This document shows, in pieces, positions 3,326 to 32,287 of a stretch of DNA of 34,538 bases. The notes under the pieces were generated by a model that saw nothing but the letters and a program-made list of their open reading frames with translations, was not told the origin of the DNA and did no database searches. Origin of the DNA: Phycisphaerae bacterium. GTDB taxonomy: Bacteria > Planctomycetota > Phycisphaerae > Phycisphaerales > UBA1924. How positions within the stretch are numbered: the stretch's first letter is position 1; each line of letters starts with the position of its first letter. The position numbers and the translations under genes are program-made. The stretch spans positions 1 through 34,538 of the forward strand of contig JAEUJA010000063.1 in NCBI GenBank assembly GCA_016793195.1, given 5' to 3'.

Positions 3326-4267
3326 GTGCACGACGCTTCGAGCGAGGTTTCCCGCAAGGTGATGGCGCTGGTGGCGCGTCTGCGGCTGGTGCAGAGCCAG
3401 CTTTCGGACGAGTCCGTGGACGTTCGGCGCGAGCAGCTGGACGGGGAGATTTCGCGCGCCCTGCAATCGATCGCGTCGGGCGATCGCGAGGAGTTCCTGA
3501 AGGAATTGATGGGGGCGTTCCCGACCGCGGACGGCGCGGGGCGGAACGGGGCGGCGGGCGCGGCCGGGGCTGTCACGCAGACCAAGGTCGTCGAGGTCGT
3601 CAAGCCGCGCGAGCTGACGTTTGAAGAAATGGTGGACGGGCTGGTGAAGCAGTGGGGGCTGGCGACGCCGGAGCAGAAGGCCAAGGCGGCGGCGCGGTTG
3701 TCGCAGTCGGGGGTGGCGCCCGCGGGGGGCGGGGCGGGGCTCTCCGAGGCGCAGGTGTCGAAGCTGCGGGACAAGCTGGCGTTCGGGGTCGGCGAGATGC
3801 CCGACGCGGCGCGGGTCGCGGAGCTGTCGGTGGCGATGTTCGAGTTTGCGATGGGCGTCGACAACCTGGTGTGGGGCATGTGGTCCAAGAAGCTGGCGCC
3901 CAACTCGCCCCTGCGGCGCAACGGCACGCTCCAGCGGTTCCTCCGCGACTATGTCACGGGCAAGGGCGAGCTGGCGGGCGGCGGGCCGGTCGCGCCCGAG
4001 GTCCGTCGCCTGCTCCAGATGGCCATCGCGGTGGTGAGTTCGATCGGGCAGGCGGGGACGGCGTTCGGCGAGAAGTATGTGTCGCAGCTCTCGCCCGGCG
4101 CGATCGAGGACGGCATCGGCGACTCGGCGTTCCGCAGCAAGGACGCGGATTGCTGGAAGGCCTACAAGCTCCGGGCCGGTTCGCTGGACCGCCAGGCGAT
4201 CGACGGGGAGATCACGCAGGCGATCGCGCGGTTCGTCGAGGATTGGATGAAGAAGGCCGGGTTGTAG
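3326..4267 (+). CDS. T6SS-associated protein upstream of tssK; possible TagH C-terminal-like protein without FHA domain
   Basis: 313 residues from GTG 3326, which has a G-rich stretch about 5 bases upstream; ATG 3362 and ATG 3281/3284 are alternatives. There is no signal peptide or TM, so it should be cytoplasmic. The N-terminal third is charged and helical, followed by an Ala/Gly-rich linker. The C-terminal half (about 150-313) is well ordered, with MFEFAMGVDNLVWGMW, NSPLRRNGTLQRFLRDY and a final segment with DCWKAYKLRAGSL and FVEDWMKK. This pattern of a 'NPL' helix, a loop, and a final 'W..Y' helix reminds me of the C-terminal domain of the T6SS FHA protein TagH. TagH commonly sits just before tssJ/tssK, so position agrees. 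No FHA domain is present. The family call is tentative; that the gene is real is secure from its codon use and the tssK gene 74 bases downstream. Confidence 0.6.
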   Translation: MHDASSEVSRKVMALVARLRLVQSQLSDESVDVRREQLDGEISRALQSIASGDREEFLKELMGAFPTADGAGRNGAAGAAGAVTQTKVVEVVKPRELTFEEMVDGLVKQWGLATPEQKAKAAARLSQSGVAPAGGGAGLSEAQVSKLRDKLAFGVGEMPDAARVAELSVAMFEFAMGVDNLVWGMWSKKLAPNSPLRRNGTLQRFLRDYVTGKGELAGGGPVAPEVRRLLQMAIAVVSSIGQAGTAFGEKYVSQLSPGAIEDGIGDSAFRSKDADCWKAYKLRAGSLDRQAIDGEITQAIARFVEDWMKKAGL

Positions 4268-5751: not shown

Positions 5752-5878
5752 GGCGCGGAGAAAGTCCGGCGGGGGGTGCGCCGCGGGGCGGGCCCCGTGT
5801 CTTTCTTGCTTTCTGGTCCTGGGACAGATCGGGTGGGTGAAGCGGGCGCGCCAAGGCGGCGGCCCGACGGGAGGATCG

Positions 5879-6586
5879 ATGGCGACGCTCGTGGAGACCT
5901 GTGAGCCTTTGTTCCAGTACATCTGCCGCCTGAACCGGCTGGGTCGCAAGGGCGGGCTGGTGGACGCCGGGCAGGTGCGGAGCGAGCTGCGCTCGATGCT
6001 GTCGGAGGTGAAGCTGCGGGCCGAGGGCTCGGGGCTGGGCGAGCAATTCGCCAAGGTGCGCCTGCCTCTGATTTATTTCGTGGACTTCATGGTGCGTGAG
6101 AGCGCGCTGCCGTTCGCGCGGACGTGGAAGCACCTGCAGGAAGAAGAGCTGAAGCGGATCGCGGGCGATCAGGATTTCTTCGTGCAGCTCGACGAGACCC
6201 TGAGCGAGCAGGGCGAGGCGGCCAACCAGCGGCTGGCGGTGTTCTACAGCTGCCTGGCGCTGGGGTTCACGGGCATGTACACGGGCCAGGCGGACGGGCC
6301 GATGTTCCTGCGCAAGAAGATGCTGGAGATCGCGGCCCGCATCCGCCCCATGATGGACGCGGAGGAGAACTCGCGGATCTGCCCCGAGGCGTACCAGAAG
6401 GTCGACACGCGCGAGCTTGAGATCGCGGCGGCGCCGGGCGTCTTGCGCTGGGTCGTGGTGCTGGCGATCATGGTGGTGGCGCTCCTGGCGGCCAACTGGA
6501 TCGGATACCGAGAGGCCACCGACACCATCGGGCAGGCCCTGGACGGGATCAAGAACAACACCGCGTCGGCGGAGGCGGCCAAGTAG
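5879..6586 (+). CDS. tssL: TssL, T6SS inner-membrane protein (DotU/ImpK family)
   Basis: 235 residues from ATG 5879, with GGGAGG about 5 bases upstream; GTG 5837 in frame has no comparable site. The protein is a helical cytoplasmic domain with DotU-family features (PLIYFVDFMVRESALPF, ETLSEQGEAANQRLAVFYSCLALGFTGMY) followed by one C-terminal TM helix (about 191-211) and a short tail of about 24 residues. This is the tail-anchored topology of TssL. There is no OmpA-like peptidoglycan-binding extension, so another protein must anchor the complex to the wall, if it is anchored. TssL dimerises, and together with TssM and TssJ forms the trans-envelope complex that docks the TssK-bearing baseplate. 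It lies 89 bases upstream of tssM. Confidence 0.93.
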   Translation: MATLVETCEPLFQYICRLNRLGRKGGLVDAGQVRSELRSMLSEVKLRAEGSGLGEQFAKVRLPLIYFVDFMVRESALPFARTWKHLQEEELKRIAGDQDFFVQLDETLSEQGEAANQRLAVFYSCLALGFTGMYTGQADGPMFLRKKMLEIAARIRPMMDAEENSRICPEAYQKVDTRELEIAAAPGVLRWVVVLAIMVVALLAANWIGYREATDTIGQALDGIKNNTASAEAAK

Positions 6587-6675: not shown

Positions 6676-9600
6676 ATGGATTCGATGCTGGTCATGGCGT
6701 GGATGCTGGCGCAGAGCGGCGGGCTCTCGAGCGTCCTGAAGTTCTTCGGGCTCTCGCCCAAGATGCTCCTCATCATCGTGATCGGCCTGGTGGTCGCGAT
6801 CGCCGCGTGGTGGCTGGTCAAGTTCATCTACAAGCACCGCGAGAAGGCCAAGGAACTGACGCTGGTGCGGCGCATGTTCGCGTCGACTTCGGGCGGTCCG
6901 GCGGCGGGCGCGGACCCGGCCAAGCGGGCGGCGATCGACGGGATGCGGCGCTCGTTCGAGGAGGGCGTGGAGAAGTTCCGGGCCGCGGGCAAGAACGTGT
7001 ACACGCTCCCGTGGGTGCTCTTGGCGGGCCCGTCGGGCTCGGGGAAGACCGAGGCGATCCGCCACTGCAACGTGGGATTCCCGCCGGGGCTTCAGAACTA
7101 TCTCCAGGGCGCGGGCGGCACGCTCAACATGCACTGGTGGTTCACCAACGACGCGGTCATCATCGACACCGCCGGGCGAATCTTCATGGAGAACGCCGGC
7201 ACGGGCGGCGGCGAGGAGTGGCGCGAGCTGCTCAAGATGCTCAAGGACGTCCGGCCCCTGTGCCCGATCAACGGGATGCTCCTGTGCATCGGCGTCGACA
7301 GCCTCATCAAGGACTCGGGCGACGACATCCAGGAGAAGGCCGGAAAGATCGCCCAGCAGCTCGACACCATCCAGCGCATGCTCGACGTGCGCTTCCCGGT
7401 CTTCGTGGTCGTCACCAAGTGCGACCTCATCACCGGCTTCCGCGAGTTCTTTGAGAACGTCACCGACCCCGGGCTCCAGCACCAGATGCTGGGCTGGTCC
7501 AACCCCGCGGCCCTGGACACGGTCTTCAACCCCGAGCAGGTCTCCGAGCACATCGAGACGGTGCGCCAGCGCCTGCTCCGGCGTCGCTACGCGCTCATGA
7601 TCGACCCGGTCCACACCGACGACCCCCAGGCGAGGCGCACGGACCAGGTCGACGCGCTCTACGCCCTCCCCGACAGCCTGGCGCGGTTGTCGTCGCGCCT
7701 CCGGCGCTACCTCGAGCTCATCTTCGTGCAGGGCGAGTGGTCGCCCAAGCCCCTGTTCCTCCGCGGCATCTACTTCACCTCGTCCATGCGCCAGGGCGCC
7801 GAGCTCGACGAGGAACTCGCCAAAATGCTGGGCGTCAGCGTCGACAAGCTCCCGGGCGGCGTGTCCGAGGAAAAGTCCTACTTCCTCCGCGACGTCTTCA
7901 AGGAAAAAATCTTCAAGGAGAAGGGGCTCGTCACCCGCGCCACCAACGTCGACAAGCACCAGGCGCGCCAGCGCCGCGTCGTCGTCGGCTCGGCGATCGG
8001 CGCGGCGGTGCTCTTGCTTGGCCTCACGCTCCTGTCGTCGTACTCGTTCCGCCAGGAAGTCGGCAAGAAGGAAGAGTCGTGGCGGACGATCTGGGGGCGG
8101 ATGGGCGACCTGTCGCCCCTGGGCCTGGGCGGCGCGGCTCCGGCGTACCGCGATCAGAAGGACGTGAAGATCGGGCTCGACGACCTGACGCGCACGGGCG
8201 CGGTGGTGCTGTCGCGCCAATTGGCCGAGCAGCCGCCCAGCGTGCCGCTCCTCCTGAAGCCCGTCGATCTCCTGGGCGTCTTGGGGCGTGGCGGCGACTT
8301 TGAGGCGCGCCTGAAGGGCGCGTCGACGGCGCTGATCGAGCGCGAGGTGGCGGCCAAGCTGGTCGAACAGGCCCGGGCCCGCATGACCCGCGACCTGAAG
8401 GAAGGCAAGCCCTGGAGCGACGAGGCCACCGCCGTGCTGGCCGGGCTCGTCCGCATCGAACGCGGCGAGGTCGGGCCCGCGCAGCCCGTTCCCTTCGATG
8501 TCGACGCCTTCGCGCGCTATGTGCTGGCCAAGGACGAATACGCCAAGGCCGGCGGCGAGGCCAAGCAGCTCCAGGAGCTGGTCACCTGGGCCTACGCCAA
8601 GGACCAGGGCGGCGGCGAGTGGCCAGGAGCCGAAGGGTCGCTGGGACGCGACGCCAACCTCGTCAAGGCCGGCGTGGCGGCGTTCAACGCCCACTGGTCC
8701 AGCGCGCTGGCGAGCGACCCGGCGCTGGGCAAGCTCGTCGCGCTCCGCGACAAGGCCGGGGCGTTCGAGACCGCCGAGCAGGCGCTGCTCTCGGGCGCTG
8801 ATCCGGTGATCGTCAAGACGCTGGCGGAAGGCGACGGGTCCTACGCCCGCTTCGAGAAGTCCTGGAGCGAGAAGTTCGGCGCGATCAAGTCGGCGCACGA
8901 CGAGCTGGACGCGGCCCGCAAGGCCGCCGACTTTGGAAAGCCCGACGCACTTGCCAAGACACTGGAGGCGGCGCGGACGAGTCTGATCGCCAAGGCGAGC
9001 GCGGCGTACGCGACGGTGCTCGACGAGGCCGCCCCCGAGGGCGCGCCGGGGGCGCTGCTCCCGACGGGCGTGAGCTCGACCACGGACAAGGTGGCGGGCC
9101 AGGTCAACCGCGCCGGCGAGGCGGCCGGCAAGGCGATCGACGCGCTGGGCATCGGTTCCAAGGACTGGGCGGGCGACCTCAAGGCCCGCCAGCAGGAGAT
9201 GAAGGACGCGCGCGGCAAGCTGGCGACGGCGATCGGCGCCGAGATCGACAAGCTCAAAGCCCAGTTGGACGAGAAGAGCAAGTCGGGCGGCGTGCTGGCG
9301 TCGCGCCCGAGCGATGATTTCGAGTTCGCGGCCCGCTTCCGCGCCTACGCCGCCGCCGACGGCGCCGTCCGCGCCTCGGCCCCTCCCGCCGGCGACACCA
9401 AGCCAAAGTGGGGAGAGCTCACGACCGCGGAGAAGGCCCGCGTCAACACGTTCGGGGCGGCCCGGACCGCGATCCAGAAGGACTTCGCCCAGGCCGGCGA
9501 CGCGGCGTCCGCCGGGACCGGCGCGGGCAAGGCCTGGCAGGTGGTGGGGCTGGCCGAGAAGGCGGCCCGCACCCGCGCGGTGGCGTCGGCGCTCGAGGGC

Positions 9601-11163
9601 ACTTCGGGCGACGCGGGCTGGGTCAAGGACCGCGTGCGCGACCTTTCCAAGGCGCTCCCCGCGGGCGTTGAGGCGCGGGTCGACAAGCGGCTGTTCAAGG
9701 GCAAGCTCGATCTGCCCGGCGCGCCCTTGGCGTCGGCGTCGTCGACCGAGCTGTTCGACCCCAACGGGGCCGCGATGGTGCTCGACGATTTCAAGTTCGC
9801 CAAGACCGACGCGGCGGCGCGATTCCTGAGCGACTCCGGCGTGGGCGCCAAGCTCGACGCGGCCGAGGTCGCGGTGAAGGGCTACGCGGGCGAGTATTTC
9901 ACGGCGTGGACGCAAACGACCATCGGGAACGCCGCGCCCCGCTTCGAGAGTTGGGACGCGGCCCGCGACGCCGCGGGCAAGCTGGGGCTCGGCTCGTCCG
10001 ACTGGTCGCAGAAGCTGGCCGACCTCGAGGCCTTGATGATCGTGGCGCTCGACATCCCCGGGCTGGACCTGGCCCTTGGGGCCCGCGCCGAATCGCTGAA
10101 GCAGTGGCAGCAGAAGCTCGGCGCCGACCGCGACGCCCTCAACAACTCGGGCTCCTCGCTCCGCGTCGACGTGCCCAACGCGGTGGGCCAGAAGTTCGCG
10201 GCCCTGGCGGGCAGCCCGGTCGAGGCACGGCGTCAGATCGGCAATATGGCCGCCACGGATTTCGCCAAAGGCTACTTTGCCAGCTTTGATCCCAAGGTGC
10301 TCGAGGGCGGCGTGCAAGGGGTGGGCGAGTCGTACTGGTCGCTGGCGCGCTTCGAGATGCTCCGCGTGCTGGCCGAGACCTATGCGAATCACCCCGATCG
10401 CGTGCGCTTCGACCAGGCCAAGCAGTTCCCGCTGTATTTCGACGGGGCGGCCCTGGGCGGCGGCAAGCTCTCCAAGGAGCGCGTGCAGAAGATCATCGAC
10501 GCGCTCCCCGCCAGCGCCAACGCGGCGGCCGGCGGGACGCGCGTGCAGGACGGCGCCAAGACCGGCATCGTCCGCGTCGATGAGCAGCTCGACGAGCTGT
10601 TCAAGGCCGATCCGTTCCTGGCCGGGAAGCAGGAGCTCGTCGCGTCGCTCCGCGCCTGGGGCGGGTGGCTCTTGGCCGACAAGACGGTCAGCGTGGTCGC
10701 GCTGGCGGACCACGGGTATGTCTCCGACAAGGCGAGCGAGCAGCTGCGCTCGCCCGCCGGCGCTCAGGCCGCCATCGGCGGGGCGATCTTCACCGAGTTG
10801 AAGATGAACGGCGTGACGGTCGGCATCACCAACGAGGGCACCGAGCTCATCACGGGCATGGGCGTTCCTTCGTCGGATGTCGGCAAGCTCAAGGTGGACA
10901 TGAAGGGCGGGGCGGCCAACCAGACCGGGACGTGGGCGCCGTCGAGCGAATGGGGCGCGCTGGAATTGCTGTGCCAGAACGGCGCCGAGCCCGCCGACGC
11001 GAGCTGGAAGCCGCTGGCCGACGCCAACGCCCCGAGCAAGTTCTGGCGTGTGCCGGTCTTCTTCACCGACGCGGGCGGCAAGGCCTACTTCGTCCGCGTC
11101 GGGCTCAGGTTCAGTGTGGACGTGCCGGCCCGGGCCCTGTGGCCCCAGGGCGGGAAGTGGTGA
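6676..11163 (+). CDS. tssM: TssM, T6SS inner-membrane complex protein (IcmF/VasK family)
   Basis: 1495 residues from ATG 6676, with AGGAAG 6 bases upstream. An N-terminal TM helix (about 30-52) leads to a cytoplasmic GTPase-like domain with an intact Walker A motif GPSGSGKT (118-125) and a Walker B-like VIIDTAGR (161-168). A VVTKCDLITGF segment resembles an NKxD motif. A second TM (about 435-458) is followed by a very long, Ala/Lys/Asp-rich periplasmic part of about 1000 residues. The C-terminal beta-rich end has KVDMKGGAANQTGTWAPSS and FFTDAGGKAYFVRVGLRFSV. TssM usually spans about 1100-1300 residues, so this one is long, with the extra length in the Ala-rich helical periplasmic part. TssM bridges the inner membrane to the outer-membrane lipoprotein TssJ, which is not found here. 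Confidence 0.95.
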   Translation: MDSMLVMAWMLAQSGGLSSVLKFFGLSPKMLLIIVIGLVVAIAAWWLVKFIYKHREKAKELTLVRRMFASTSGGPAAGADPAKRAAIDGMRRSFEEGVEKFRAAGKNVYTLPWVLLAGPSGSGKTEAIRHCNVGFPPGLQNYLQGAGGTLNMHWWFTNDAVIIDTAGRIFMENAGTGGGEEWRELLKMLKDVRPLCPINGMLLCIGVDSLIKDSGDDIQEKAGKIAQQLDTIQRMLDVRFPVFVVVTKCDLITGFREFFENVTDPGLQHQMLGWSNPAALDTVFNPEQVSEHIETVRQRLLRRRYALMIDPVHTDDPQARRTDQVDALYALPDSLARLSSRLRRYLELIFVQGEWSPKPLFLRGIYFTSSMRQGAELDEELAKMLGVSVDKLPGGVSEEKSYFLRDVFKEKIFKEKGLVTRATNVDKHQARQRRVVVGSAIGAAVLLLGLTLLSSYSFRQEVGKKEESWRTIWGRMGDLSPLGLGGAAPAYRDQKDVKIGLDDLTRTGAVVLSRQLAEQPPSVPLLLKPVDLLGVLGRGGDFEARLKGASTALIEREVAAKLVEQARARMTRDLKEGKPWSDEATAVLAGLVRIERGEVGPAQPVPFDVDAFARYVLAKDEYAKAGGEAKQLQELVTWAYAKDQGGGEWPGAEGSLGRDANLVKAGVAAFNAHWSSALASDPALGKLVALRDKAGAFETAEQALLSGADPVIVKTLAEGDGSYARFEKSWSEKFGAIKSAHDELDAARKAADFGKPDALAKTLEAARTSLIAKASAAYATVLDEAAPEGAPGALLPTGVSSTTDKVAGQVNRAGEAAGKAIDALGIGSKDWAGDLKARQQEMKDARGKLATAIGAEIDKLKAQLDEKSKSGGVLASRPSDDFEFAARFRAYAAADGAVRASAPPAGDTKPKWGELTTAEKARVNTFGAARTAIQKDFAQAGDAASAGTGAGKAWQVVGLAEKAARTRAVASALEGTSGDAGWVKDRVRDLSKALPAGVEARVDKRLFKGKLDLPGAPLASASSTELFDPNGAAMVLDDFKFAKTDAAARFLSDSGVGAKLDAAEVAVKGYAGEYFTAWTQTTIGNAAPRFESWDAARDAAGKLGLGSSDWSQKLADLEALMIVALDIPGLDLALGARAESLKQWQQKLGADRDALNNSGSSLRVDVPNAVGQKFAALAGSPVEARRQIGNMAATDFAKGYFASFDPKVLEGGVQGVGESYWSLARFEMLRVLAETYANHPDRVRFDQAKQFPLYFDGAALGGGKLSKERVQKIIDALPASANAAAGGTRVQDGAKTGIVRVDEQLDELFKADPFLAGKQELVASLRAWGGWLLADKTVSVVALADHGYVSDKASEQLRSPAGAQAAIGGAIFTELKMNGVTVGITNEGTELITGMGVPSSDVGKLKVDMKGGAANQTGTWAPSSEWGALELLCQNGAEPADASWKPLADANAPSKFWRVPVFFTDAGGKAYFVRVGLRFSVDVPARALWPQGGKW

Positions 11164-11265: not shown

Positions 11266-14200
11266 ATGGCCATCCAAGGCAAGCCTCAGCTTTTTCTCGC
11301 GGTGTTCGGCAAGCACCCGGGCTGGGACGATCACATCGACGACCTGGGCATCGAGACCAAGCGCCTCGCCGAGGTCAAGCGCGTGATGTACGAGGAGTGC
11401 ATCGCCGGCAACATCGACTCGGGCTCGTGGGAGGCGCTGGACGATTCGGCGCGCCTCGCCGCCTTTGCGCACGAGTTCGTGTGGAGAAGTCCGGGCGGGC
11501 TCGTGGTCGGGCGCTTGTGGTCAAGCAAGGACGGCAAGGGGCGCAGCAAGTATCCGATGGTGGTGGTCGCGCAGTGCGACAACGTGCCGACGCCGTTCCT
11601 GGCGTCGCAGGTGATGCCGGCGCTGGCGGGCCTGCAGGAGCGGTTCCAAGCCGCCGTGAGCGCGGGCGAGGTGATCCAGGCCGCCGCCGACGCGCGCTCG
11701 CGGTTGCGCGAGGCGCTGGCGGGCGCCGGCGCCGGCCCGGGCGATGCGTTCGTCGCGCCGCCCAAGGAGCTGGCGTCGACGCTGGCGGGCGCGGGGCTGA
11801 GCGGCGATTCGGTGGCGATGCAGCGGGTGATGTACGAGATCGACCGCGAGATGGCGCCGTTCCGCCCGATCGGAAAGGGTGACGGGAAGAAGAGCACGCG
11901 ATTGATCGACGCGCGGGCCCAGCACCTGCGCGTGCCGATGATCGGCGTCACCAGCCTCGACGCGGCCAGATTCTGGATGGGCGTGCTGGCGCGCGAGGTC
12001 GATGGCGGCGTCTCGCAGATCACGCTGGTGCCCCTGGCGCCCGCGGGCGAGATCGGCTTTGCCGACCTGGTCGTGGGCGACCCCGGCCCGCCGCAATTGT
12101 TCTGCCTGCGCGCCGGCGGCAAGGCCCTGGCCCCCGCCAGCGACGTGCCCTACACGATGACGCCCGATTTCATGGCGCGCTGCAAGGCGACGGTGGCGGC
12201 GTGGTCGGGCGAGGTGGTCAAGGCGCCCGAGCCCGCCGCGCCCAAGCCTCCCGCGCCACAGGCCGCGAGCCCGACGCCGGAAGCCCAGGGCTCGCCCGCG
12301 CCGAACCCGGCGCCCGCGGCGAACGCTCCGGCGAAGAAGAAGTTCCCGTGGTTCCTGCCGGTGGCGGCGGTGGTGGTGGTGGGCGGCGCGCTGGCGGCGT
12401 GGCGACCTTGGGAAGAAACGAAGCCCAACATCGCGATGAGCGACAAGCCCGCCAACGAGAAGCCGATCACGCCGCCCGAGGCCAAACCATCTGAAGTCAA
12501 GCCACCCGAGGCAAAGCCCGATCCCGCGGCCGAGGCACGCAAGGTCGAGGAGGCGCGCAAGCTCGAAGAAGCCCGAAAGGCCGAGGAGGCTCGCAAGGTC
12601 GAGGAAGCGCGCAAGGCCAAGGAAGAGGCGGACCGCAAGACCAAAGAAGAGGCCGAGCGCAAGCTGAAAGAGGACGCGGACCGCAAGGCCAAGGAAGAGG
12701 CCGATCGCGTCGCCCGGGATGAGGCCGATCGCAAGGCCAAGGACGAGGCGGCTCGGAAGGCCAAGGAAGACGCGGATCGCGTCGCGCGCGAGGAGGCAGA
12801 GCGTAAGACCCGGGACGAGGCCGAGCGCAAGGCCAAGGAAGAGGCGGCCCGGAAGGTCAAGGAAGAATCCGATCGCAAGGCCAAGGACGAGGCGGATCGG
12901 AAGGCCAAGGAGGCCGCCGCCCGCACCGCCGCCGAGGTCGAGAAGCAGCGCGACGATCTGCGGCGTCAGTTCATCCAGCTCGATTCGCTTCTGCAGCAGG
13001 CGTTCGTGGTCGGCGAGAAGACCGCCGACGGCTCGAGCGTCGACGCGATCTTCGCCAAGGTCAGTGCCAACCCCGAATTCGCCGCGTTCCGCGACGCGAC
13101 GCCCGCGGCCCGCGAAACACTCGAACGCATCGAGGCGCTCCGGGCCATCCCCGCCAGCTCCAACGCCGGCGAATTGGCGGCCCACGCGACCGGCGCCAGG
13201 CTCGCCGAGCAGATCGCGGCCTGGTCGCGCCTGGCCTCGGGCGCGGCGAGCTGGCCCGCCAACGCCACCGACCTCAAGGGCGCCGCCGCCACGGTCGCCA
13301 CCATGGAGACGTCCACCAACGACGTGGGCGGCGAGCGCGGCGCGCTGCTCAAGAAGCGCGTGCTCGCCGACGCGGCAAAGATCTGGACGCGCTACGCCGC
13401 GGCCCAGACCAGCGCCGAGTCTCTTCTCGAGGCCGAGTCCTACCGCGACGACTTCCGCGTCAAGCCCGGCGATCTCCCCGCGCCGGTCAGGTACAACATT
13501 GAGATCGCCAAGCTCCGGCGCGACGCCGCAGCGTTCAAGAACGACGCGGGCGATGACGCGCTCCGCGCGCGCCTCGCCGCCTTTGTCGCCGGCGCGGGCG
13601 AAACCAAGGGCGCCGGCCTGGACGCGGTTCGATCGCTCCTGAGCGCCACCGCGTCCGCCGGCGTCGATCCGACCAAGAGCGGCCCGGGCGCCAAGGGCTG
13701 GCGCGCCGAGGTCCGCGACAACGGGCAGGTTGTCGCCTTTACCCTCACCGGCGTCAACCGCCCGGCGCGCACGCTCGAATTCGCCCGTCTCGAAATCGGC
13801 GGCGTGACGTCGTACCTGGCGACCACCGAGGCCTCGATCGGGCTGCTCGTCGACGCCGCCGACAACGCCCAGGCCTGGCCCGACGTGCTGGGCGTGCTCC
13901 CGCCCGCGTCGCGGAGCGAGCAGGTGACGTGGGTGCGCGGCTGGGAATGGAAGATGACGGGCAAGCAGGCGACCGCCATTCAGCCCGCCACCAACGCGCG
14001 CGATTGGACCGCCGGCTGGTTCGCCGTCGCCAACTTTGGCTCCATGACCAGCGCCAAGAAAGAGATGTATCCAAGCGGCCCGCGCCCCGCGTCGCCCACC
14101 GCCGAAACGCCCATGCAGTATCTCTCGGTGGGGGCGGCGGCGTATGTCGCCGGGCTCGCCGGATGCAGGCTTCCAACCGCCGCGGAATGGGCGGCGGCGT

Positions 14201-14709
14201 CGGCGGACGCGGGTGGAACGCCCAACCTCCGCGACGCGGCGTGGAAGAAGGTCTTTGACCAGTGCCGCCCCATCGTGCAGGCGCCCAAGCCCTACGACGG
14301 CGTCTTTGCCGGCGAGGTGAAGGCCGCCGACGTCGCGCCCGCCGTCACGACCGACGACGGCGTGGTGTGGTTCACGGAGGTCGGCGCCGGCCCCGGCTCG
14401 CGATTCAAGAACCTGATCGGCAACGTCGCCGAGTTTGTCACCACCGTCCCGGTCGATCCGGTGGCGAGCCGTGCCGAAGCGGCGAAGGTTTCCGAGTTCG
14501 GGCGCGTCATCGGCGCGTCGGCGCTCTCGCCGTCCAAGGTCGATGCGGCGACGCCCATGACCATCGCACGCGGCAGCGCGGGCTTCGAGTTCAGCGACGT
14601 GGGCTTCCGCCTGGCGTTCACCGCCGGGGCGGCGGCCAAGCCGGTCCCCATCACCCACGCCGCGTTCCAATCCGCGGTTCAGGGGCTGCAATTCGCGGGG
14701 AGCAAGTGA
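11266..14709 (+). CDS. TagF/ImpM-like protein fused to TM, coiled coil and FGE-sulfatase-like domain
   Basis: 1147 residues from ATG 11266; ATG 11230 is in frame but has no ribosome site. The N-terminal head (about 1-320) has FGKHPGWDDHIDDLG and, further on, VVGRLWSSKDGKGRSKYPMVVV. These resemble the GKxPxxGDF start and the GR.FP core of TagF (ImpM), a cytoplasmic post-translational repressor of T6SS in other bacteria. A Pro/Ala linker, one TM helix (about 360-382) and a long KAKEEADRK-type coiled coil (about 422-565) follow. The helical stretch then leads to an FGE/SUMF1-like fold (about 809-1125) with GCRLPTAAEW, NLRDAAW, LIGNVAEF, VIGASA and DVGFRLAF. The C-terminal catalytic cysteines of FGE are absent. 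The tail parallels that of the 1-2777 gene. Position right after tssM is common for tagF. Membrane and periplasmic fusion of TagF is unusual; the head's name is the least certain part. Confidence 0.75.
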   Translation: MAIQGKPQLFLAVFGKHPGWDDHIDDLGIETKRLAEVKRVMYEECIAGNIDSGSWEALDDSARLAAFAHEFVWRSPGGLVVGRLWSSKDGKGRSKYPMVVVAQCDNVPTPFLASQVMPALAGLQERFQAAVSAGEVIQAAADARSRLREALAGAGAGPGDAFVAPPKELASTLAGAGLSGDSVAMQRVMYEIDREMAPFRPIGKGDGKKSTRLIDARAQHLRVPMIGVTSLDAARFWMGVLAREVDGGVSQITLVPLAPAGEIGFADLVVGDPGPPQLFCLRAGGKALAPASDVPYTMTPDFMARCKATVAAWSGEVVKAPEPAAPKPPAPQAASPTPEAQGSPAPNPAPAANAPAKKKFPWFLPVAAVVVVGGALAAWRPWEETKPNIAMSDKPANEKPITPPEAKPSEVKPPEAKPDPAAEARKVEEARKLEEARKAEEARKVEEARKAKEEADRKTKEEAERKLKEDADRKAKEEADRVARDEADRKAKDEAARKAKEDADRVAREEAERKTRDEAERKAKEEAARKVKEESDRKAKDEADRKAKEAAARTAAEVEKQRDDLRRQFIQLDSLLQQAFVVGEKTADGSSVDAIFAKVSANPEFAAFRDATPAARETLERIEALRAIPASSNAGELAAHATGARLAEQIAAWSRLASGAASWPANATDLKGAAATVATMETSTNDVGGERGALLKKRVLADAAKIWTRYAAAQTSAESLLEAESYRDDFRVKPGDLPAPVRYNIEIAKLRRDAAAFKNDAGDDALRARLAAFVAGAGETKGAGLDAVRSLLSATASAGVDPTKSGPGAKGWRAEVRDNGQVVAFTLTGVNRPARTLEFARLEIGGVTSYLATTEASIGLLVDAADNAQAWPDVLGVLPPASRSEQVTWVRGWEWKMTGKQATAIQPATNARDWTAGWFAVANFGSMTSAKKEMYPSGPRPASPTAETPMQYLSVGAAAYVAGLAGCRLPTAAEWAAASADAGGTPNLRDAAWKKVFDQCRPIVQAPKPYDGVFAGEVKAADVAPAVTTDDGVVWFTEVGAGPGSRFKNLIGNVAEFVTTVPVDPVASRAEAAKVSEFGRVIGASALSPSKVDAATPMTIARGSAGFEFSDVGFRLAFTAGAAAKPVPITHAAFQSAVQGLQFAGSK

Positions 14710-14813: not shown

Positions 14814-14971
14814 GGCCTGTGATTTGGTGCCGTGGAGGTCCTTCTTGACCTTTCCGGGAAGAACGGGGTCGTGGTCATTGAGCGGGCGTGGCGGTGCGGT
14901 TTGACGGCGTCGGCCGCCTCGGGGCGGGGTTGTCGAATCGGCGTGGCGGTGCCCGAGAGCGAGGAACGCGA

Positions 14972-16963
14972 ATGGGTCGTGCGCGCGAGGATCGGAAATT
15001 CGGCGTGATGGGTTTCGGCGGCGCGTGGGTGCTGGCGATGTGCGCGGGGATGGCGGCGGGCGTGCGGGCCCAGGACGCCCAACCGCCGGCCCAACCCCCG
15101 GTTGATCCCCCGGAGGCCAAGGCCCCCGAAGGAAAGGCTGAGGACGCCGGGGTGTTCGTGAAGGTCGACGACGCCGCGGCGGACAGCCGCGTGTACCCGA
15201 TCTCGCGCGTGCTGATCGTGCACGGGCGCGACCACGCCGGCCAGCCCGACCTTCAGGACGAGCGATTCCAGAACCTGACGGTGCGGCTGGGCAAGACCCC
15301 CGAGGGGTACGCCGCCGCGGGCACGGGCGACGCGGTCACGCTGAAGCTGGCCGACCTGACCGAGGGCTCGGGCGGCATGTTCCGCAAGAGCGCCATCGAG
15401 GCGATCGCCGGGGCCATCGTCGGCGAATTGAACCGGCGCGGGGTGTACGGCGTGCACGTGGCGCCCAGCGACGAGGACATCAACGAAGACACCGGCGAGG
15501 ACATGCGCGACGGGCGCACCGCCCTGGTGTTTGTCGTCTACACCGCGATCGTCAAGGACGTGCGGACCATCGCCAGGGGCGAGCGCTTCGAGGGCGAGCA
15601 ATCGATCAACCACCCGGCCCACGCCAACGTGCGGGCCCGCAGCCCGGTGGTGCCCGGCTCGCTCCTGCGCAAGGACAAGCTCGACGACTACGCCTACCAG
15701 CTCAAGCGCCACCCCGGGCGCGTGGTCGACATCGCGGTCTCGGCCGCCGACGAGGAGGGCGGGGCCCAGGTCGATTACCTCGTGGGCGAGAACAAGCCCT
15801 GGACGCTGTACTTCCAGATCTCGAACACGGGCACCAAGAACACCGAGGACTGGCGCGAGCGATTCGGCTTCACCCACAACCAGCTGACGAATCACGACGA
15901 CATCCTGCAATTGGAGTACTCGACCGCGGGGTTTGATTCCTCGCACGCGATCACGCCCAGCTACGAGTTCCCGCTCCTCTCGAACAAGCTGCGGGCCAAG
16001 GTGTACGGCTCGTGGACCGACTTCACCGCGTCGGACGTGGGCCTGAGCGAGGCCAAGTTCACCGGCGACGGGTGGAGCCTGGGCGGCGAGCTGGCGTGGA
16101 ACGTGGCGCAGTGGGGCCCGGCGTTCCTGGACCTGGTGGGCGGCGCCCGCTGGCAGAACGTGCACATCCGCAACGAGACCGACCCGATCAACGTGATCGA
16201 GGGCGAGGACGACTTCTTCATGCCGTATGTCGGGGCGCGCCTGACCCGCGACACCAACTTCGCGCGCACCTATGCCGAGGCGCTGGTCGAGTTCAACGTC
16301 TCGGGCATGGCGGGCACGGAGGAGGCGGAAATCGGGAACATGGGCCGCTCGAACCCCGACGATGAATTCGCGGTGTTCCGCTGGGACCTGACGCAGTCGC
16401 TGTTCATCGAGCCGCTCTTCAACCCGCGCGGGGGGACGGCGGACGGCAAGGGCATGACGTTGGCGCACGAGCTGGTGGGGAGTTTCCGCGGGCAAAACGC
16501 GCTGGGCTCGCGCCTGGTGCCGACGTTCGAGGCCGTCGCCGGCGGGTTCTACAGCGTGCGCGGCTACCCGGAGTCGGTGGTGGCGGGCGACAACTCGGTC
16601 GTCGCCAGCTTCGAGTATCGCTTCCACATCCCCAACGCCTTCACGGCGCGCGAGCCCACGCGGCTCTTCGGGCGCGACTTCCGCGCCACGCCCCAGACGC
16701 CGTACTACGGCACGGCGGACTGGGACCTGATCGCCAAGGCGTTCATCGACGTCGGGCGGGTGACCAACAACGACCGCCTGTCGTTCGAGAACGACGAGAC
16801 GCTGGTGGGCGCGGGTCTCGGCCTTGAGCTCCAGGTGCTGCGGAACGTCAACGTCCGCGCCGACTGGGGCGTGGCGATGGAGGAAGTGAACAAGGAGGGC
16901 GGCGGGGAGTTCGTCTCCGACGGGAGCAGCCGCTTCCACCTCTCGTTCACGCTGCTGTTCTAG
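14972..16963 (+). CDS. TpsB-type outer-membrane transporter (ShlB/FhaC-like, Omp85 superfamily)
   Basis: 663 residues from ATG 14972, with GAGGAA about 5 bases upstream. A signal peptide ends near AGVRA-QD, followed by a Pro/Ala-rich linker. A periplasmic POTRA-like part (about 60-280) includes VYPISRVLIVHG and the helix KSAIEAIAGAIVGELNRRGVYGV. A beta-barrel then starts around LYFQISNTGTKNTEDWRERFG. The Omp85 L6 motif VRGY is at 529-532 (FYSVRGYPES), and the protein ends in FHLSFTLLF, a typical terminal-Phe beta-signal. This family inserts in the outer membrane and exports a partner exoprotein with a TPS domain, which is encoded 160 bases downstream. Finding such a pair between a tagF-like gene and tssA is unusual. 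It could transport something other than its neighbour, but the pairing is the simplest reading. Confidence 0.9.
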   Translation: MGRAREDRKFGVMGFGGAWVLAMCAGMAAGVRAQDAQPPAQPPVDPPEAKAPEGKAEDAGVFVKVDDAAADSRVYPISRVLIVHGRDHAGQPDLQDERFQNLTVRLGKTPEGYAAAGTGDAVTLKLADLTEGSGGMFRKSAIEAIAGAIVGELNRRGVYGVHVAPSDEDINEDTGEDMRDGRTALVFVVYTAIVKDVRTIARGERFEGEQSINHPAHANVRARSPVVPGSLLRKDKLDDYAYQLKRHPGRVVDIAVSAADEEGGAQVDYLVGENKPWTLYFQISNTGTKNTEDWRERFGFTHNQLTNHDDILQLEYSTAGFDSSHAITPSYEFPLLSNKLRAKVYGSWTDFTASDVGLSEAKFTGDGWSLGGELAWNVAQWGPAFLDLVGGARWQNVHIRNETDPINVIEGEDDFFMPYVGARLTRDTNFARTYAEALVEFNVSGMAGTEEAEIGNMGRSNPDDEFAVFRWDLTQSLFIEPLFNPRGGTADGKGMTLAHELVGSFRGQNALGSRLVPTFEAVAGGFYSVRGYPESVVAGDNSVVASFEYRFHIPNAFTAREPTRLFGRDFRATPQTPYYGTADWDLIAKAFIDVGRVTNNDRLSFENDETLVGAGLGLELQVLRNVNVRADWGVAMEEVNKEGGGEFVSDGSSRFHLSFTLLF

Positions 16964-17008
16964 TTCGGGGAGAGGGGCGTCGCGGGCGATGGCCCGGGCG
17001 CGGGTCCT

Positions 17009-17068
17009 CGCGACTGGGTTTCACGCGACTGGGTTTCACGCGACTGGGTTCCACGCGATTTGGTTCGA
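17009..17068 (+). repeat. 15-bp tandem repeat upstream of tpsA
   Basis: Two perfect copies of CGCGACTGGGTTTCA (17009-17023, 17024-17038), a third with one change (17039-17053, ending TTCCA) and a degenerate fourth (17054-17068). The array lies in the 160-base tpsB-tpsA gap, about 55 bases before the tpsA start. It could be a protein-binding array, an RNA element, or a simple slippage repeat. Confidence 0.85.
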
Positions 17069-17123
17069 TCGGGATGATGCACACGAGCCGGGGCGAGGAT
17101 GCCCGGGCGACACGAGGTTTGCC

Positions 17124-20100
17124 ATGAACACGAAGCTGTTGAACGCCGATTCGTTGAGCCGGGGCCGCACGAATGGTCTGTCGCTGTCGCTGGCCGCCGG
17201 GCGGGCGCTGCGGTCGCGATTCGCGTGGCACGGCGCGTTCTCGGGCGGGCTGCTGGCGATGGCGGGTGTCGCGGTGGGGCAGGTGCAGGGCGTGTCGGGC
17301 GAGCAGGTGGCCGCCGGCCAGGCGAAGTTCGTGCGCTTCGGCAACAACGTGACGATCACCGCCGCCCACAACACGATCATCAACTACAACTCGTTCAACA
17401 TCCGGTCGGGCGAGTCGGTGAACTTCGTGCAGCCCGACGCGCTGGCGCGGGTGCTCAACCGCATCAACTCGGCGGAGCCCTCGCGGATCGACGGGTCGCT
17501 CTCGTCCAACGGGCGGGTGTACATCGTCAACCCCGCGGGCGTGTACTTCGGCGCCGGCTCGGTGGTCAACACCGGGAGCATCTTCGCCGCCGCCGGCAAC
17601 CTGTCGAACGCCGACTTCCTCCGCAACATCAACCGCTTCACGGACGTCAAGGGCAAGGTGGTCAACGAGGGCGCGATCACGACCGCGCCGGGCGGGGTGG
17701 CGGCCCTGGTCGGCTCGGCCGCGATGAACTACGGCACGATCCACGCGCCCCAGGGCACCATCATCATGGCCTCTGGCTCCAACGTGCTCATCGGCGAAGA
17801 GGGCGGGCACGTCTACGCCCAGGTCGACACCGCCAAGGCCAGCGGCATGGGCCCCGAGGGCGACGGCGCCCCCGCCGCCCAGAAGGCCCGCTTCGGCGCC
17901 GGCGACGTCTTCGCGGTCGCCGTCTTCAACAAGGGCGTCGCCAAGGCCAAGCGCGTCCAGATGGAAACCTCGCGCGGCGTGACGGTCGCCTCGGGCACGA
18001 TCGATGTCTCGGACAAGGCCGCCGGCGGCAAGGGCGGCTCGGTCGAAATCCTCGGCGATCGCGTGGCGCTCGTCGACGCGACCATCGACGCCTCGGGCGA
18101 CGTCAAGGGCGGGCAGGTGCTCGTCGGCGGCGACCTGCAGGGCAAGGGCGCCCAGCGCAACGCGGCGCTGGCGAACGTCGACGCCAAGTCCGTGGTTCGC
18201 GCCGACGCGATTTCGTCGGGCGACGGCGGCAAGGTCATCGTCTGGTCCGACGACACCACCAAGTTCCAGGGGCTCATCACCGCCCGCGGCGGGGCCCAGG
18301 GCGGCGACGGCGGCTTCGTCGAAATCTCCGGCGCGCAGTACCTCCACGCGGCCCACAACGTCGACCTCTCGGCCCCCAAGGGCAAGGCCGGCACCGTTCT
18401 TTATGACCCCTTGAACATCCGCATCGACGGCTCGGCCGCCGGCAACGCCGACGGCTCGGACGACACCGACGCCAGCGCCACCAACCTCATCAACGACTCG
18501 GGCTCCAACACCCAGGGCTCGATCACCTTCACCGACGAGGGCGCGGGCACCCCCGATCCCTTCATCGTCACCGAATCCGAGATCGAGAATACCGACGCCA
18601 ACATCATCCTCCAGGCCCGCAACAGCATCCTGACCAACGGCGATTTCGCCGGCGACGAACTCACGATCGCCAGCAACCGCACCCTCACGCTCGAAACCCG
18701 CAACAACGCGGGCGACGGCGCGGGCTCGATCGACCTCACCGGCTCGACCGAGGGCGCCGCCCTGGTCATCCGCACCCAGGGCACCGGCACGATCACCATC
18801 AACGCCTCGACCGACGGCGGAAGCGTCGGCGACATCGACCTGTGCGCGCTCACCACCGCCGGGCAGGCGATCAACGTTTCCACCCTGAACGGGGCCATCT
18901 CCGTCCAGGGGGCGATCGCGACCAGCAACGGCGCGGTCACGCTCACCTCCACCGGTGCGCTCTCGACCAGCGCCACCATCAACTCGGGCAACGGCCTGCT
19001 CAGCTTTACGTCCTCGGCCTCGACCATCACCATCGGCAGCGCCCTCACCGGCGGCACGGGCGGCGCGCTGATCCTTTCGTCGGGCGACCTGACGTTCAAC
19101 GCGGGCCTCGCCGCCGCGGGCGGCACGGTCCGCCTGGCGTCCAGCGCGGGCCAGGTCACCCAGGCCGGCGCCACCGCCCTCACCGGCGCGACCCTCGGCG
19201 TGCGCGCCGCCACCGGCATCTCGCTCCCGGAATCCGGCAACAGCTTCACCTCGTTCGCGGCGTTCGCCAGCGGCGCGGCGGCGCCCATCAGCTACCGCGA
19301 TACCAACGCGCTGAACGTTTCGAGCGTCACCGCCTCGGGCGGCTTCGGCGCCACCTTCGGCATCGGCACCACCGGCAATGGCGCCGTCACCCTCCAGACC
19401 GGCGCCGGGCTCACGCTCCTCAACAACGTCGACTCCGACGCCGGCGCCATGGCCCTCACCGCCGCCAGCGGCAACGTGCTGGAATCCGGCGGCGTCGTCA
19501 TCGCCACCGGCACGCTCACGCTCTCCGGTGGCGCGTCGTTCCTCCTCTCCAACTCCTCCAACGACCTGGGCACCGTCACCGGCTCGGTCTCCGGCAGCAC
19601 CATCATCCTCAACGACGGCACGGGCTCGCTCACCCTCGACACCTTCAGCCACACCAACGGCGCCGGCTCCTTCACCGCCATCGCCACCACCGGCAACATC
19701 ACAGACACCACCAGCGCGACCTTCGCCGGCTCGTCGTCCTTCAGCGCGGGCGGCTCGATCACGCTCGACAACCTCGCCTCCACCGGCGCGCTCTCCGTCG
19801 CCACCGGCGCCGGCAACGTCACCCTCGTCAACGCCACCGGCGTCAATCTCGACGCGTCCTCGACCGTCGTCGGCGACCTCTCCGTCACCGCCACCACCGG
19901 AAACATCACCGACGCCGCCCCCGTCGACGTCAACGGCAACGCCACCTTCAGCGCCCCGGCCAACGGCGCCTCCATCACCCTCGACCAGCTCGACGTCTCC
20001 GGCACCTCATCGTTCACCACCGCCGGCACCGGCTCCACGATCACCCTCACCAGCCCCGTGCTCGGCTCGGCCGCGTCGTTCACCACCGGCTCGGGCGGCA

Positions 20101-23100
20101 CCGTCTCCCTCACCATGCCCGCCGCCACCTCGGTGTCCATCGGCGCCTCGACCGTCGACGGCAACGTCACCCTCAACACCGACGACGTCGACTTCACCGG
20201 CGGCAACGACAGCGTCGGCATCACCGGCACCCTCGACATCCTCCCCGTTACCACCACGCGCGAGATCGTGCTGGGCACCGCGGGCGCGGGCACGCAGCTG
20301 GTCCTCGACGACACCGACCTCGACGCCCTGGCCGACGGCATCGACCTCATCACCGTCGGACGCACCAACAGCAACGCCGACTCCACCATCGACGCCTTCT
20401 CCATCGCCGATCCGCTCTACGTCCGCACCCCCTCGGGCGGCGTGATGACCATCTCCGGCGCCGTCGTCGGCTCGGGCGATTCCTCCCTGTGGTTCAACAC
20501 CGGCGGCACCCTCGACCTCAACGGCTCGCTCACCGTCGCCGCCCAGAACATCCTGCTCCTCTCCACCGGCAACATGGACCTCGGCGGGAACATCAACACC
20601 GCCGGCGGCACGCTCCGCCTCGTGACCGGTTCGGCCGCGGGCGTCACCCAGTCCGCCGGCGCTATCACCACCACCGACCTGGGCGTCCGCGCCGGCTCCA
20701 TCGACATCGCGCAGAGCGGCAACACCTATTCGCAGGTCGCCGCCTTCAGCTCCGGCTCCGGCAACGCCCTGACGCTCGACACCGACAACGCCCTCACCAC
20801 CACCACCATCGCCGCCGATTCGCTCGGGCTCTTCCTGGCCACCTCGGGCGTCGCCACCACCGGCGGCGGCGACATCCTCCTCGACACGCCCCAGCTCACC
20901 ATCAACCAGCAGATCGCAAGCTCCGGCGACGTCCGCCTCCAGACCGTCAACGGCGTGACGCAGTCGGCCCGCATCCTCGCCGACGCGCTGGGCGTCGTCG
21001 CCTCCGGCGCGGGCGACCTGGTGCTGACCGATTCGGCCAACAACGCCGCCACCATCGCCCTCTCCACCGCCAACGCCGCCGACACCATCAGCTACACCGA
21101 CCTCGACGACGTCGCCGTCGGCTCCGTCGCCGCCAGCGGCTCGTTCACCGGCGCCAGCGGCGTGGGAACCAACGCCGGCGACATCCTGCTCTGCTCCGCC
21201 GGCGAACTCACCATCGCCCAGAGCATCAACGCCGGCGCCGCCGTCGTCCGCCTCTGCGCCACCAATGCCATCCTCCAGACCTCCGGCGGGATCACCGCCT
21301 CGGCCCTGGGCGCGACCTCCGACAACGCCGGCATGGTCCTGGCCTCCACCACCAACGACGTCGACACCTTCGCCGCCTCCGGCGTCGGCACCGGCAACGC
21401 CATCTCCTTCCGCGATTCCGATGGCGTCTCCATCGGCACCGTCTCGGCTTCGGGACTCTTCGCCGGCGCCACCGGCGTTTCCATCACCGACGGCAACGTC
21501 ACCCTCCGCACCGGAAACACCATGGCGCTCGACCAGAGCGTCCTCACCGGCACCGGCATCGTCTCCCTCACCGCCGACGCCGGCGGCATCACCCAGGGCG
21601 CCACGATGGGCGTCACGGGCGCGTCGCTCTCGCTGAGCGGCGTGGGCACGTTCACCCTCAACGGCAACGCCAACGCCGTCACCACCCTCGACGCGACCAC
21701 CACCGGCAACGTCACCTACATCGACACCACCGCCCTGGACCTGGCCGCGTCGACCGTGACGGGCAACCTCGACGTCACCGCCGCCTCGGGCAACCTGACC
21801 GACTCGGGCACGGTCGACGTGAGCGGCACGGGCACGTTCACGACCACGACCTCCAACGCGACCATCACGCTCAACCAGCTCGCCGTCGACGGCGCGATCA
21901 GCGCCAACACCAGCGGCGCGTCGGGCGACGTGACGCTCACCAACGCGACGGGCATCGACCTGGCCGCGTCTTCGATCGGCGGCATCCTCGACGCCGTCGC
22001 CACCACCGGCAACATCACCGACTCGGGCGCGGTGACGATCAGCGGCTCGGGCGCCTCGGCCCTCACCACGCTCGGCGCCAACGCCGACATCACCCTCGAC
22101 ACCACCAACACTTCCGCCGGCTCCATCGGCGTCAACACCACCGGCGCCACCGGCGACGCCTCGATCACCAGCACCGCCGCGATCAACCTCGACGGCTCCA
22201 CTCTGGGCGGAAGCCTCACCCTCGTCAGCGACGATATCGACCTGGTGGGCGGCGCGGGCAGCGTCGTTTCCAGCGGCGGGTCGGCGACCATCACGCTCGG
22301 CTCGCTCAACGCCGCCACCTCGATCGGCGTGGGCACCGGCGCGGGCACGCTGGCGCTGGACGCCACCGACCTGGCCGGCATCGGCGCGTTCTTCGGCGGG
22401 ATCAACATCGGCAACGCCGCCGGCACCGCCGCCCTCACCATCGGCGACGCGACGCTCCCGCTCTCCACCACCTTCACCATGACCGGCGCGGGCGGCTCGA
22501 TCGTCACCACCGGCGGCACGACGCTCAGCGCGCCGGGCTCCAACAACCTCACCTTGAACGCCGGCTCGGTCTCGCTCGCCGGAACCATGAACGCCGGCAC
22601 CGGCACCGTCCGCGTCGTCTCCGCCGGCGCCGTCAACCAGACCGCCGGCTCCATCACCGCGACCAACCTGGGCGTCCGCGCCGGCGGCGCCGTCACGCTC
22701 AACCAGAGCAACAGCGTCACCACCTTTGCCGCCAACTCCAGCGGCGGCGGCTCGGCGGTCCAATACACCGACGCCTCGGGCCTTGACCTTGGAACCATCT
22801 CCGCGCTCGGCGCCTTCAGCGCGACCAGCGGCATCACCACCAGCAACGGCGACGTGCTCGTCTCCGCCGGTGGTGCCCTCACCATCCCGCAGTCCGTCAG
22901 CGCCGGCGCCGGCACCGCACGCCTGGCGTCCACCGGCGCCGTCACCCAGTCCGGCGGCTCGATCACCGCGGCGTCTTTGGGTGTCCGCGGCGGCGGGGCG
23001 ATCACGCTCAACCAGACCTCCAACAACGCCGGCGCCTTCGCCGCCACCACCAGCTCGGGCAACGTGAGCTATGTCGACGCCGACGCGCTGACGATCGGCT

Positions 23101-28177: not shown

Positions 28178-29239
28178 GTGCCCATCGATGTTGAAGGTCT
28201 GCTCCGCCCCGTCTCCGACGCCGCACCCTGCGGCGAGGACCTGCGCTACGACCGCCGATACCTCGAGGTCATGCGCCTGGCCGAGGGCAAGCCCGAACAA
28301 CAGATGGGCGACACCATCGTCCCCGGCGAAGAGCCCAACTGGCGAGAGGTCGGCGACGGCTGCCTCGAACTCTTCGCACGAAGCAAAGACCTCCGCGTCG
28401 CCATGCTCCTCTGCCTGGCCCAGGTCCGCCTCGACGGATACCCCGGACTCCGCGACGGCCTGCGCCTCGTCAAGGGCATCGTCGAAAACTTCTGGGACGG
28501 CATGTTCCCGCTCCTGGACCCCGACGACGGGAACGACCCCACCGAGCGGATGAACATCATCGCCTCCCTCGCCGTGCCCCCCGGCAGCTTCGGCGACCCG
28601 ATGAAGTTCCAGGATCGCACCCGCGAGGCGTCGATCGTCGAGCACCGTCAGCTCGGGCGCGTCGGCCTGCGCGAGCTGCTCATCGTCGCCGGCGACCTGC
28701 CCGCGCCGACCGACGCCTCGGCCCCCAAGCTCGATTCGGGCGCCATCGAGGCGATCTTCGAGGAGGTCGAGACCCCGGCCCTGGAGGCCGTCGCCAAGAC
28801 CATCGAGGAAGCCGCCGAGCTGGTCAAGGGCCTCGAGGACACCCTGACCAACAAGGTCGGGGCCGGCAAGGCGGTCGACCTGTCGAGCTTCCGCACCCTG
28901 GTCGCCGACGCCGCCAAGGCCGTGCGAAAGCGGCTGTCCAAACGTGGCGTGGGCGGGCCCGCCGGCGCGATCGACGAGGCCACCGGCCTCCCCTCGGGCC
29001 CGGGCGGGCAGCGCCTCGCCGGCGAGATTTACTCTTCCTCCGATGTCCGCGAGGCATTGGACAAGATTGTGCGCTATTACGAGCTGCGCGAGCCTTCGAG
29101 CCCCGTGGCGCTGGTGATGCAGTGCGCCCACCAGCTTGTCGACAAGAACTTTTTGGAGATCGTGCGGGTGCTGACGCCCGACGCGATCCAGGTGCTGGAA
29201 AAGATCAAGACCCCGCCGGACCAGGGCCAGCCGAGCTGA
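28178..29239 (+). CDS. tssA: TssA, T6SS assembly/cap protein (ImpA N-terminal family)
   Basis: 353 residues from GTG 28178; a GAGAGGTG site lies about 9 bases upstream. The ImpA N-terminal domain covers about 1-140: LLRPVSDAAPCGEDLRYD, SKDLRVAMLLCLAQVRLDGYPGL, GLRLVKGIVENFWDGMFPLLDPDD and a 'ERMNIIASL' segment. A variable charged middle (about 190-290) is followed by a C-terminal helical part with SSSDVREALDKIVRYYELREPSSPV and IVRVLTPDAIQVLEKI, as in the VasJ/TssA C-terminal region. In other bacteria TssA primes baseplate and sheath assembly and then caps the growing tail. It opens the A-B-C-hcp part of the cluster; tssB follows after 248 bases. Confidence 0.92.
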   Translation: MPIDVEGLLRPVSDAAPCGEDLRYDRRYLEVMRLAEGKPEQQMGDTIVPGEEPNWREVGDGCLELFARSKDLRVAMLLCLAQVRLDGYPGLRDGLRLVKGIVENFWDGMFPLLDPDDGNDPTERMNIIASLAVPPGSFGDPMKFQDRTREASIVEHRQLGRVGLRELLIVAGDLPAPTDASAPKLDSGAIEAIFEEVETPALEAVAKTIEEAAELVKGLEDTLTNKVGAGKAVDLSSFRTLVADAAKAVRKRLSKRGVGGPAGAIDEATGLPSGPGGQRLAGEIYSSSDVREALDKIVRYYELREPSSPVALVMQCAHQLVDKNFLEIVRVLTPDAIQVLEKIKTPPDQGQPS

Positions 29240-31483: not shown

Positions 31484-31527
31484 CGGAAAAACAGCCCGAA
31501 CACGGATTTTCATCGCCGCCGCGCACC

Positions 31528-32280: not shown

Positions 32281-32287
32281 TTCCGCC

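What the first reader, a model, noticed from the sequence alone, without database searches (positions are those of the whole stretch)
11266..14709. TagF-like head fused to a TM helix, coiled coil and periplasmic FGE-like domain
TagF is known as a cytoplasmic T6SS repressor, sometimes fused to the phosphatase PppA. Here the TagF-like head is tied to the membrane and to a probable periplasmic FGE-like fold, which could make repression respond to an envelope signal. I know of no described protein with this layout.
Basis: partly seen in the sequence, partly recalled or inferred. Interest (0 to 1): 0.75.

Follow-up and report, generated by a model that had tools for sequence, protein, structure and literature searches.

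The report
Membrane-anchored TagF with periplasmic FGE-like domain
A brake protein (TagF) of a bacterial toxin-injecting machine is, in a group of planctomycetes, built into the inner membrane and joined to a domain predicted to lie in the periplasm, and the neighbouring kinase-like protein, apparently catalytically dead, carries the same domain, so the machine may be switched by contacts in the cell envelope rather than by phosphorylation.

Summary
The ORF at 11266-14709 (1147 aa) follows tssM directly inside a T6SS operon of a Phycisphaerales MAG. Residues 1-320 are a divergent TagF: TIGR03373 matches 19 of 31 relatives, profile comparison with ordinary planctomycete TagFs gives E 5.5e-10, and the AF2 model (pLDDT 90) matches crystal TagF (9t0n, Z 16.1). 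A single TM helix follows, then a charged coiled-coil-like stretch, then an FGE-like fold (AF2 pLDDT 86; Z about 15.5) without the FGE cysteine pair. The same architecture is complete in 14 genomes of at least 11 genera, so it is no artefact.

The gene at the window's start (3-2777) has the same TM/coiled-coil/FGE module, and these are the only two copies in the genome. In relatives its N-terminus is a PpkA-like kinase fold lacking the HRD aspartate. Between it and tssK lies a short gene with weak similarity to the Fha C-terminus and no FHA domain.

Best explanation: a membrane-tethered TagF brake, paired through shared periplasmic domains with a pseudokinase, so control is by envelope protein contacts. 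Architecture is shown; topology, signal and mechanism are inferred. New variant of a known kind.

The parts
11266..12225 (+). TagF domain (residues 1-320) of the fusion protein; motifs GK-P (res 15-18), S-x-D-xx-GR (res 87-93), P97, P224, W237
12226..12342 (+). Pro/Ala-rich linker (residues 321-359), ends in KKK on the presumed cytoplasmic side
12343..12402 (+). single transmembrane helix (residues 360-379)
   Evidence: hydrophobicity and flanking charge; similar position in the relatives
12403..12975 (+). Pro-rich spacer then charged, Pro/Gly-free coiled-coil-like stretch (residues 380-570), presumed periplasmic; scores as TolA-like, probably by composition
12976..13650 (+). Ala-rich region, presumed helical (residues 571-795), no family
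13651..14640 (+). FGE-like domain without the two FGE catalytic cysteines, presumed periplasmic
3..2777 (+). second protein with the same TM (522-578)/coiled-coil/FGE module; N-terminus cut by the contig start; in the same genus the N-terminus is a PpkA-like kinase fold without the HRD aspartate
3326..4267 (+). Fha-C-like gene (about 313 aa), weak T6SS_FHA_C similarity in relatives, no FHA domain
   Evidence: start from alignment with L061
4330..5751 (+). TssK
5837..6586 (+). TssL/DotU
6676..11163 (+). TssM/IcmF, immediately upstream of the TagF fusion
14888..16963 (+). two-partner-secretion outer-membrane transporter (ShlB/FhaC type), conserved neighbour
16989..28115 (+). TPS-domain exoprotein, 3708 aa, conserved neighbour
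28178..34536 (+). TssA, TssB, TssC, Hcp, TagJ/ImpE, TssE, TssF (cut by contig end)

Best explanation
This is a membrane-anchored TagF. The TagF head faces the cytoplasm beside TssL/TssM and holds back T6SS assembly. One TM helix and a long coiled-coil-like stalk connect it to a catalytically empty FGE-like domain in the periplasm, used as a docking or ligand-binding scaffold. The upstream PpkA-like pseudokinase carries the same module, so the two proteins most likely meet, or bind the same envelope partner, in the periplasm. That contact sets whether TagF can act on the membrane complex or on the FHA-less Fha-like protein, without phosphorylation. Shown: TagF identity, FGE fold, loss of FGE cysteines, sharing of the module by exactly two T6SS-linked proteins, loss of the kinase HRD aspartate in relatives, conserved operon. 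Inferred: topology, pairing, envelope signal, phosphorylation-free switching, and repression itself in this organism.
For: TagF identity by profile and structure. tagF lies directly after tssM, as in Serratia, where TagF represses membrane-complex assembly (PMC6082577). TagF residues needed for Fha binding in A. tumefaciens (GK, S-D-R; PMC5995506) are invariant or nearly so here. The tail module occurs exactly twice in the genome, both copies in this operon. The pseudokinase gene precedes Fha-like-tssK-tssL-tssM-tagF across the family. Eight of nine examined fusion genomes have one strong match to this pseudokinase family; the ninth (G015) also lacks TssC. One genome has the two genes as a divergent pair away from T6SS genes. 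TagF tails and kinase tails mix: one clade of TagF tails is rejected (p-AU 0.0017), which fits repeated copying or conversion of the module between the partners. PorK of the T9SS is a precedent for a cysteine-less FGE-like fold used as a docking hub (PMC12421860).
Against: No experiment. Topology rests on one hydrophobic helix and only a modest charge bias. Many relatives keep a stand-alone TagF beside the same pseudokinase, so the tether is not essential to the system. The Asp-x-Trp pair needed for Fha binding in A. tumefaciens is replaced. G015 has a divergent TagF-TM-FGE but no TssC and no pseudokinase in a 94% complete genome. The fused/stand-alone tree is poorly resolved.
Confidence: 0.55

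Rival explanations
1. Constitutive tether: the TM, stalk and FGE-like domain only hold TagF at the T6SS membrane complex or act as a structural periplasmic part of it, as PorK does in the T9SS. No signal is sensed.
For: PorK precedent; FGE-like domain lacks the catalytic pair; TagF is stand-alone in sister loci, so the fusion may only raise local concentration.
Against: The same module on a kinase-fold receptor fits a signalling role better, since PpkA periplasmic domains receive input from RtkS or TssW (PMC6082577; PMC12607579).
Confidence: 0.25
2. The periplasmic domain couples the T6SS to the neighbouring two-partner-secretion pair: its transporter or exoprotein is the ligand that relieves or imposes TagF repression.
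For: The TPS pair follows tagF directly in 14 or more loci.
Against: The TPS pair is equally present next to stand-alone TagF (L041, L042, L049, L050, L051), so it is not tied to the fusion.
Confidence: 0.12
3. The head has left TagF function: it no longer represses the T6SS and the protein does something else in the envelope.
For: Asp-x-Trp pair lost; orphan copies in G015 (no TssC) and G023 (no T6SS gene nearby).
Against: Conserved loop residues, fold and tssM linkage in nearly all members.
Confidence: 0.08

Closest known systems
TagF (TIGR03373 / PF09867; PA0076 2qnu, 6iz8; A. baylyi 9t0n)
   Same: Fold over the whole head, GK and S-x-D-xx-GR loop residues, position directly after tssM
   Different: Divergent subfamily below curated cut-offs; GWDDH motif, Asp-x-Trp lost; fused to TM, stalk and FGE-like domain
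TagF-PppA chimera of Agrobacterium
   Same: TagF fused to another domain in a T6SS locus
   Different: Partner there is a PppA phosphatase-like domain; no membrane segment is described
PpkA (T6SS Ser/Thr kinase with TM and periplasmic domain)
   Same: The upstream paralogue has kinase fold, TM, presumed periplasmic part and a ppkA-like gene position
   Different: HRD aspartate missing in relatives, FGE-like tail; the TagF protein has no kinase part
PorK/GldK of the T9SS
   Same: FGE-like fold without the two catalytic cysteines in a secretion machine
   Different: PorK is a ring subunit of another machine, not fused to a TagF or kinase domain
Formylglycine-generating enzyme (PF03781)
   Same: Fold (Z about 15.5) and RLPT-x-x-EW, GN-x-x-E, GFR motifs
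   Different: Catalytic Cys pair replaced; not expected to be an enzyme

Membership tests
TagF | Match to TagF profile | tested here: met
   Below curated cut-off singly (window E 0.0041), but 19/31 relatives match TIGR03373, best 9.8e-5; profile-profile E 5.5e-10
TagF | TagF fold | tested here: met
   9t0n Z 16.1, rmsd 4.5, 275 residues aligned
TagF | Fha-binding residues GK and S-D-R | tested here: met
   G15 K16 S87 D89 invariant, R93 97%
TagF | Fha-binding residues Asp-x-Trp | tested here: not met
   Asp column is Lys in 74% of heads; the need for these residues was shown for A. tumefaciens TagF, so this bears on the partner rather than on TagF identity
TagF | Linked to tssM in a T6SS operon | tested here: met
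TagF | Represses T6SS assembly | not testable with these tools
   needs an experiment
Formylglycine-generating enzyme | FGE fold | tested here: met
Formylglycine-generating enzyme | Two catalytic/copper-binding cysteines | tested here: not met
   Alignment to FGE puts no Cys pair at the C336/C341 equivalents, and no tail shows the pair
PpkA active kinase (upstream paralogue) | Protein kinase fold | tested here: met
   Profile of relatives to StkP E 1.7e-10, to PpkA 5hnv E 1.8e-3; the window copy is cut off before this domain
PpkA active kinase (upstream paralogue) | HRD catalytic aspartate with the other catalytic residues | tested here: not met
   In relatives HGN/HGG/HGR/HGQ/HGA and similar replace HRD; the one HGD (L102) lacks the Asn and the DFG Asp; the window's own kinase part is not visible
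Fha (neighbour gene) | FHA domain | tested here: not met
   Only weak T6SS_FHA_C similarity (4 of 16 relatives, best 6.5e-4; none for the window copy); no FHA match on the T6SS contigs of the genus

The most novel reading that the evidence does not exclude
In this lineage the T6SS threonine-phosphorylation pathway has become a phosphorylation-free paired receptor: a pseudokinase and a TagF brake carry the same periplasmic FGE-like module and switch an FHA-less Fha-like protein by contacts across the inner membrane.
Probability: 0.35. Interest if true: 0.8.

Novelty: new variant of a known kind. Interest (0 to 1): 0.62.

Why it matters
TagF is known as a soluble repressor whose input is unclear. 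A form built as a membrane receptor, beside a pseudokinase with the same predicted periplasmic domain, links the brake physically to the envelope and makes the question 'what relieves TagF?' directly testable. It also suggests that post-translational T6SS control can survive the loss of phosphotransfer.

Tried and rejected
Single-sequence Pfam and NCBIfam searches and a PDB sequence-profile search of the head were too weak to decide; family-wide scans and structure were needed. A viral-contig scan found nothing. The idea that the tail is an active FGE was dropped: no cysteine pair. Assembly or chimera artefact was dropped: 14 genomes share the layout. A single origin of the fusion is neither shown nor excluded by the head tree, but one clade of TagF tails is rejected. 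The Fha-like assignment has no PDB support and stays weak. PP2C_2 gave no hit in three genomes of the genus; other phosphatase families were not tried. A codon-trained gene caller missed genes in many loci and was replaced by ORF plus homology. Full-text searches found no described TagF-TM or TagF-FGE protein, but the library is open-access only.

Full report
Setting. The window is contig C96 of a 3.6 Mb genome whose close relatives are Phycisphaerales MAGs. The recognised genes, all on the + strand except a small lipoprotein, form one T6SS operon: kinase-like/FGE gene (cut by the contig start), Fha-C-like gene, tssK, tssL, tssM, the fusion, a two-partner-secretion pair, tssA, tssB, tssC, hcp, tagJ, tssE, tssF. 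In G001 the locus goes on with tssG, clpV, an Ssp4-like gene and a vgrG-position gene.

The head is TagF. Alone it scores weakly (TIGR03373 E 0.0041), but among 31 relatives TIGR03373 matches 19 and Pfam TagF_N 11, and no other family recurs. Against a profile of 18 ordinary planctomycete TagFs (one of them, L065, matches PA0076 at E 6.6e-12) hhalign gives E 5.5e-10 over 237 columns. The AF2 model (pLDDT 90) aligns with A. baylyi TagF at Z 16.1 over 275 residues and with P. aeruginosa TagF at Z about 13, against 7.7 for the next unrelated fold.

Functional residues. In A. tumefaciens, TagF needs GK, Asp-x-Trp and S-D-R to bind Fha (PMC5995506). The head family keeps GK, S and D invariant and R at 97%, but not Asp-x-Trp. 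This fits a kept interaction loop with a changed partner surface; the partner change is an inference.

Membrane and tail. One hydrophobic helix at residues 360-378, preceded by KKK, is placed similarly in the fusions. A 145-residue stretch with 66% charged residues and no Pro or Gly follows. The last 350 residues match Pfam FGE-sulfatase above its cut-off, and the AF2 model (pLDDT 86) matches FGE, PvdO, CarF and PorK at Z 14-16. The FGE cysteine pair is not kept in the tails. PorK, an FGE-like docking hub of the T9SS, also lacks it (PMC12421860).

Distribution. The full layout is present in 14 genomes of at least 11 genera, mostly one family, one from another family of the order. Two more are cut by contig ends after the TM helix. 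Stand-alone heads of about 310-340 aa are as common. In a class-wide sample 35 of 298 genomes have the head family; in a phylum-wide sample 6 of 392.

The partner. The tail module occurs exactly twice in the window's genome, here and in the gene at 3-2777 (33% identity, E 2e-49, partly low complexity). That gene is cut at its start, but in two genomes of the same genus and 13 further loci its N-terminus is a kinase fold (StkP E 1.7e-10, PpkA E 1.8e-3). The HRD motif reads HGN, HGG, HGR, HGQ and the like; no copy has all catalytic residues. It precedes the Fha-like gene and tssK in family loci, with stand-alone as well as fused TagF. Of nine fusion genomes searched, eight carry one strong member; the ninth, G015, has no TssC either. 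The neighbouring short gene resembles the T6SS Fha C-terminal domain only weakly (4 of 16 relatives, best 6.5e-4; none for the window copy) and has no FHA domain; FHA proteins of the genus lie on other contigs.

Evolution. The head tree is weakly resolved and needs about six changes between fused and stand-alone. In the tail tree a single clade of TagF tails is rejected (p-AU 0.0017), and the window's TagF tail lies in a supported group with kinase tails of its own genus (96/91). This fits repeated copying or conversion of the module between the two genes; long branches call for caution.

Mechanism. Established background: TagF blocks membrane-complex assembly, PpkA phosphorylation of Fha relieves it, and PpkA periplasmic domains receive input from RtkS or the outer-membrane protein TssW (PMC6082577; PMC12607579). 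Here the brake and the kinase-fold protein share one tail module, the kinase has lost its catalytic base in relatives, and the Fha-like protein lacks the phosphopeptide-binding domain. The simplest reading is control by protein contacts across the membrane, the shared module bringing both receptors together or to one envelope ligand. A constitutive tether is the main rival.

Limits. Nothing is shown on topology, binding, repression or signal. The kinase part of the window's own copy is not visible. Two orphan cases (G015 without TssC; G023 with a divergent pair away from T6SS genes) are not explained.

Noticed in passing
window 14888-28115: A two-partner-secretion pair (ShlB/FhaC-type transporter and a 3708-aa TPS exoprotein) lies inside the T6SS operon between tagF and tssA; the same placement directly after tagF recurs in 14 or more loci, with fused or stand-alone TagF.
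   Followed up: partly
L057 5357-13267 (G023): Pseudokinase-TM-FGE and TagF-TM-FGE form a divergent two-gene pair with no T6SS gene recognised within about 25 kb, while the T6SS operon of the same genome has a stand-alone TagF.
   Followed up: partly
L056 6649-10023 (G015): A divergent TagF-TM-FGE protein in a 94% complete genome where no TssC and no pseudokinase of this family was found: relic or reuse.
   Followed up: partly
window 2825-3079 (-): Small lipoprotein on the opposite strand between the kinase-like gene and the Fha-like gene, also in G001 (L099:4249-4512 -); its place recalls tssW between ppkA and fha in Acidovorax.
   Followed up: no
L100 9156-10181: Gene near the vgrG position in the sister locus resembles the Ssp4 T6SS effector family (E 5.8e-25, below its cut-off).
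   Followed up: no
L029 4160-5497: A TagF head followed by a TM helix but no FGE-like domain: an intermediate or a truncated form.
   Followed up: partly
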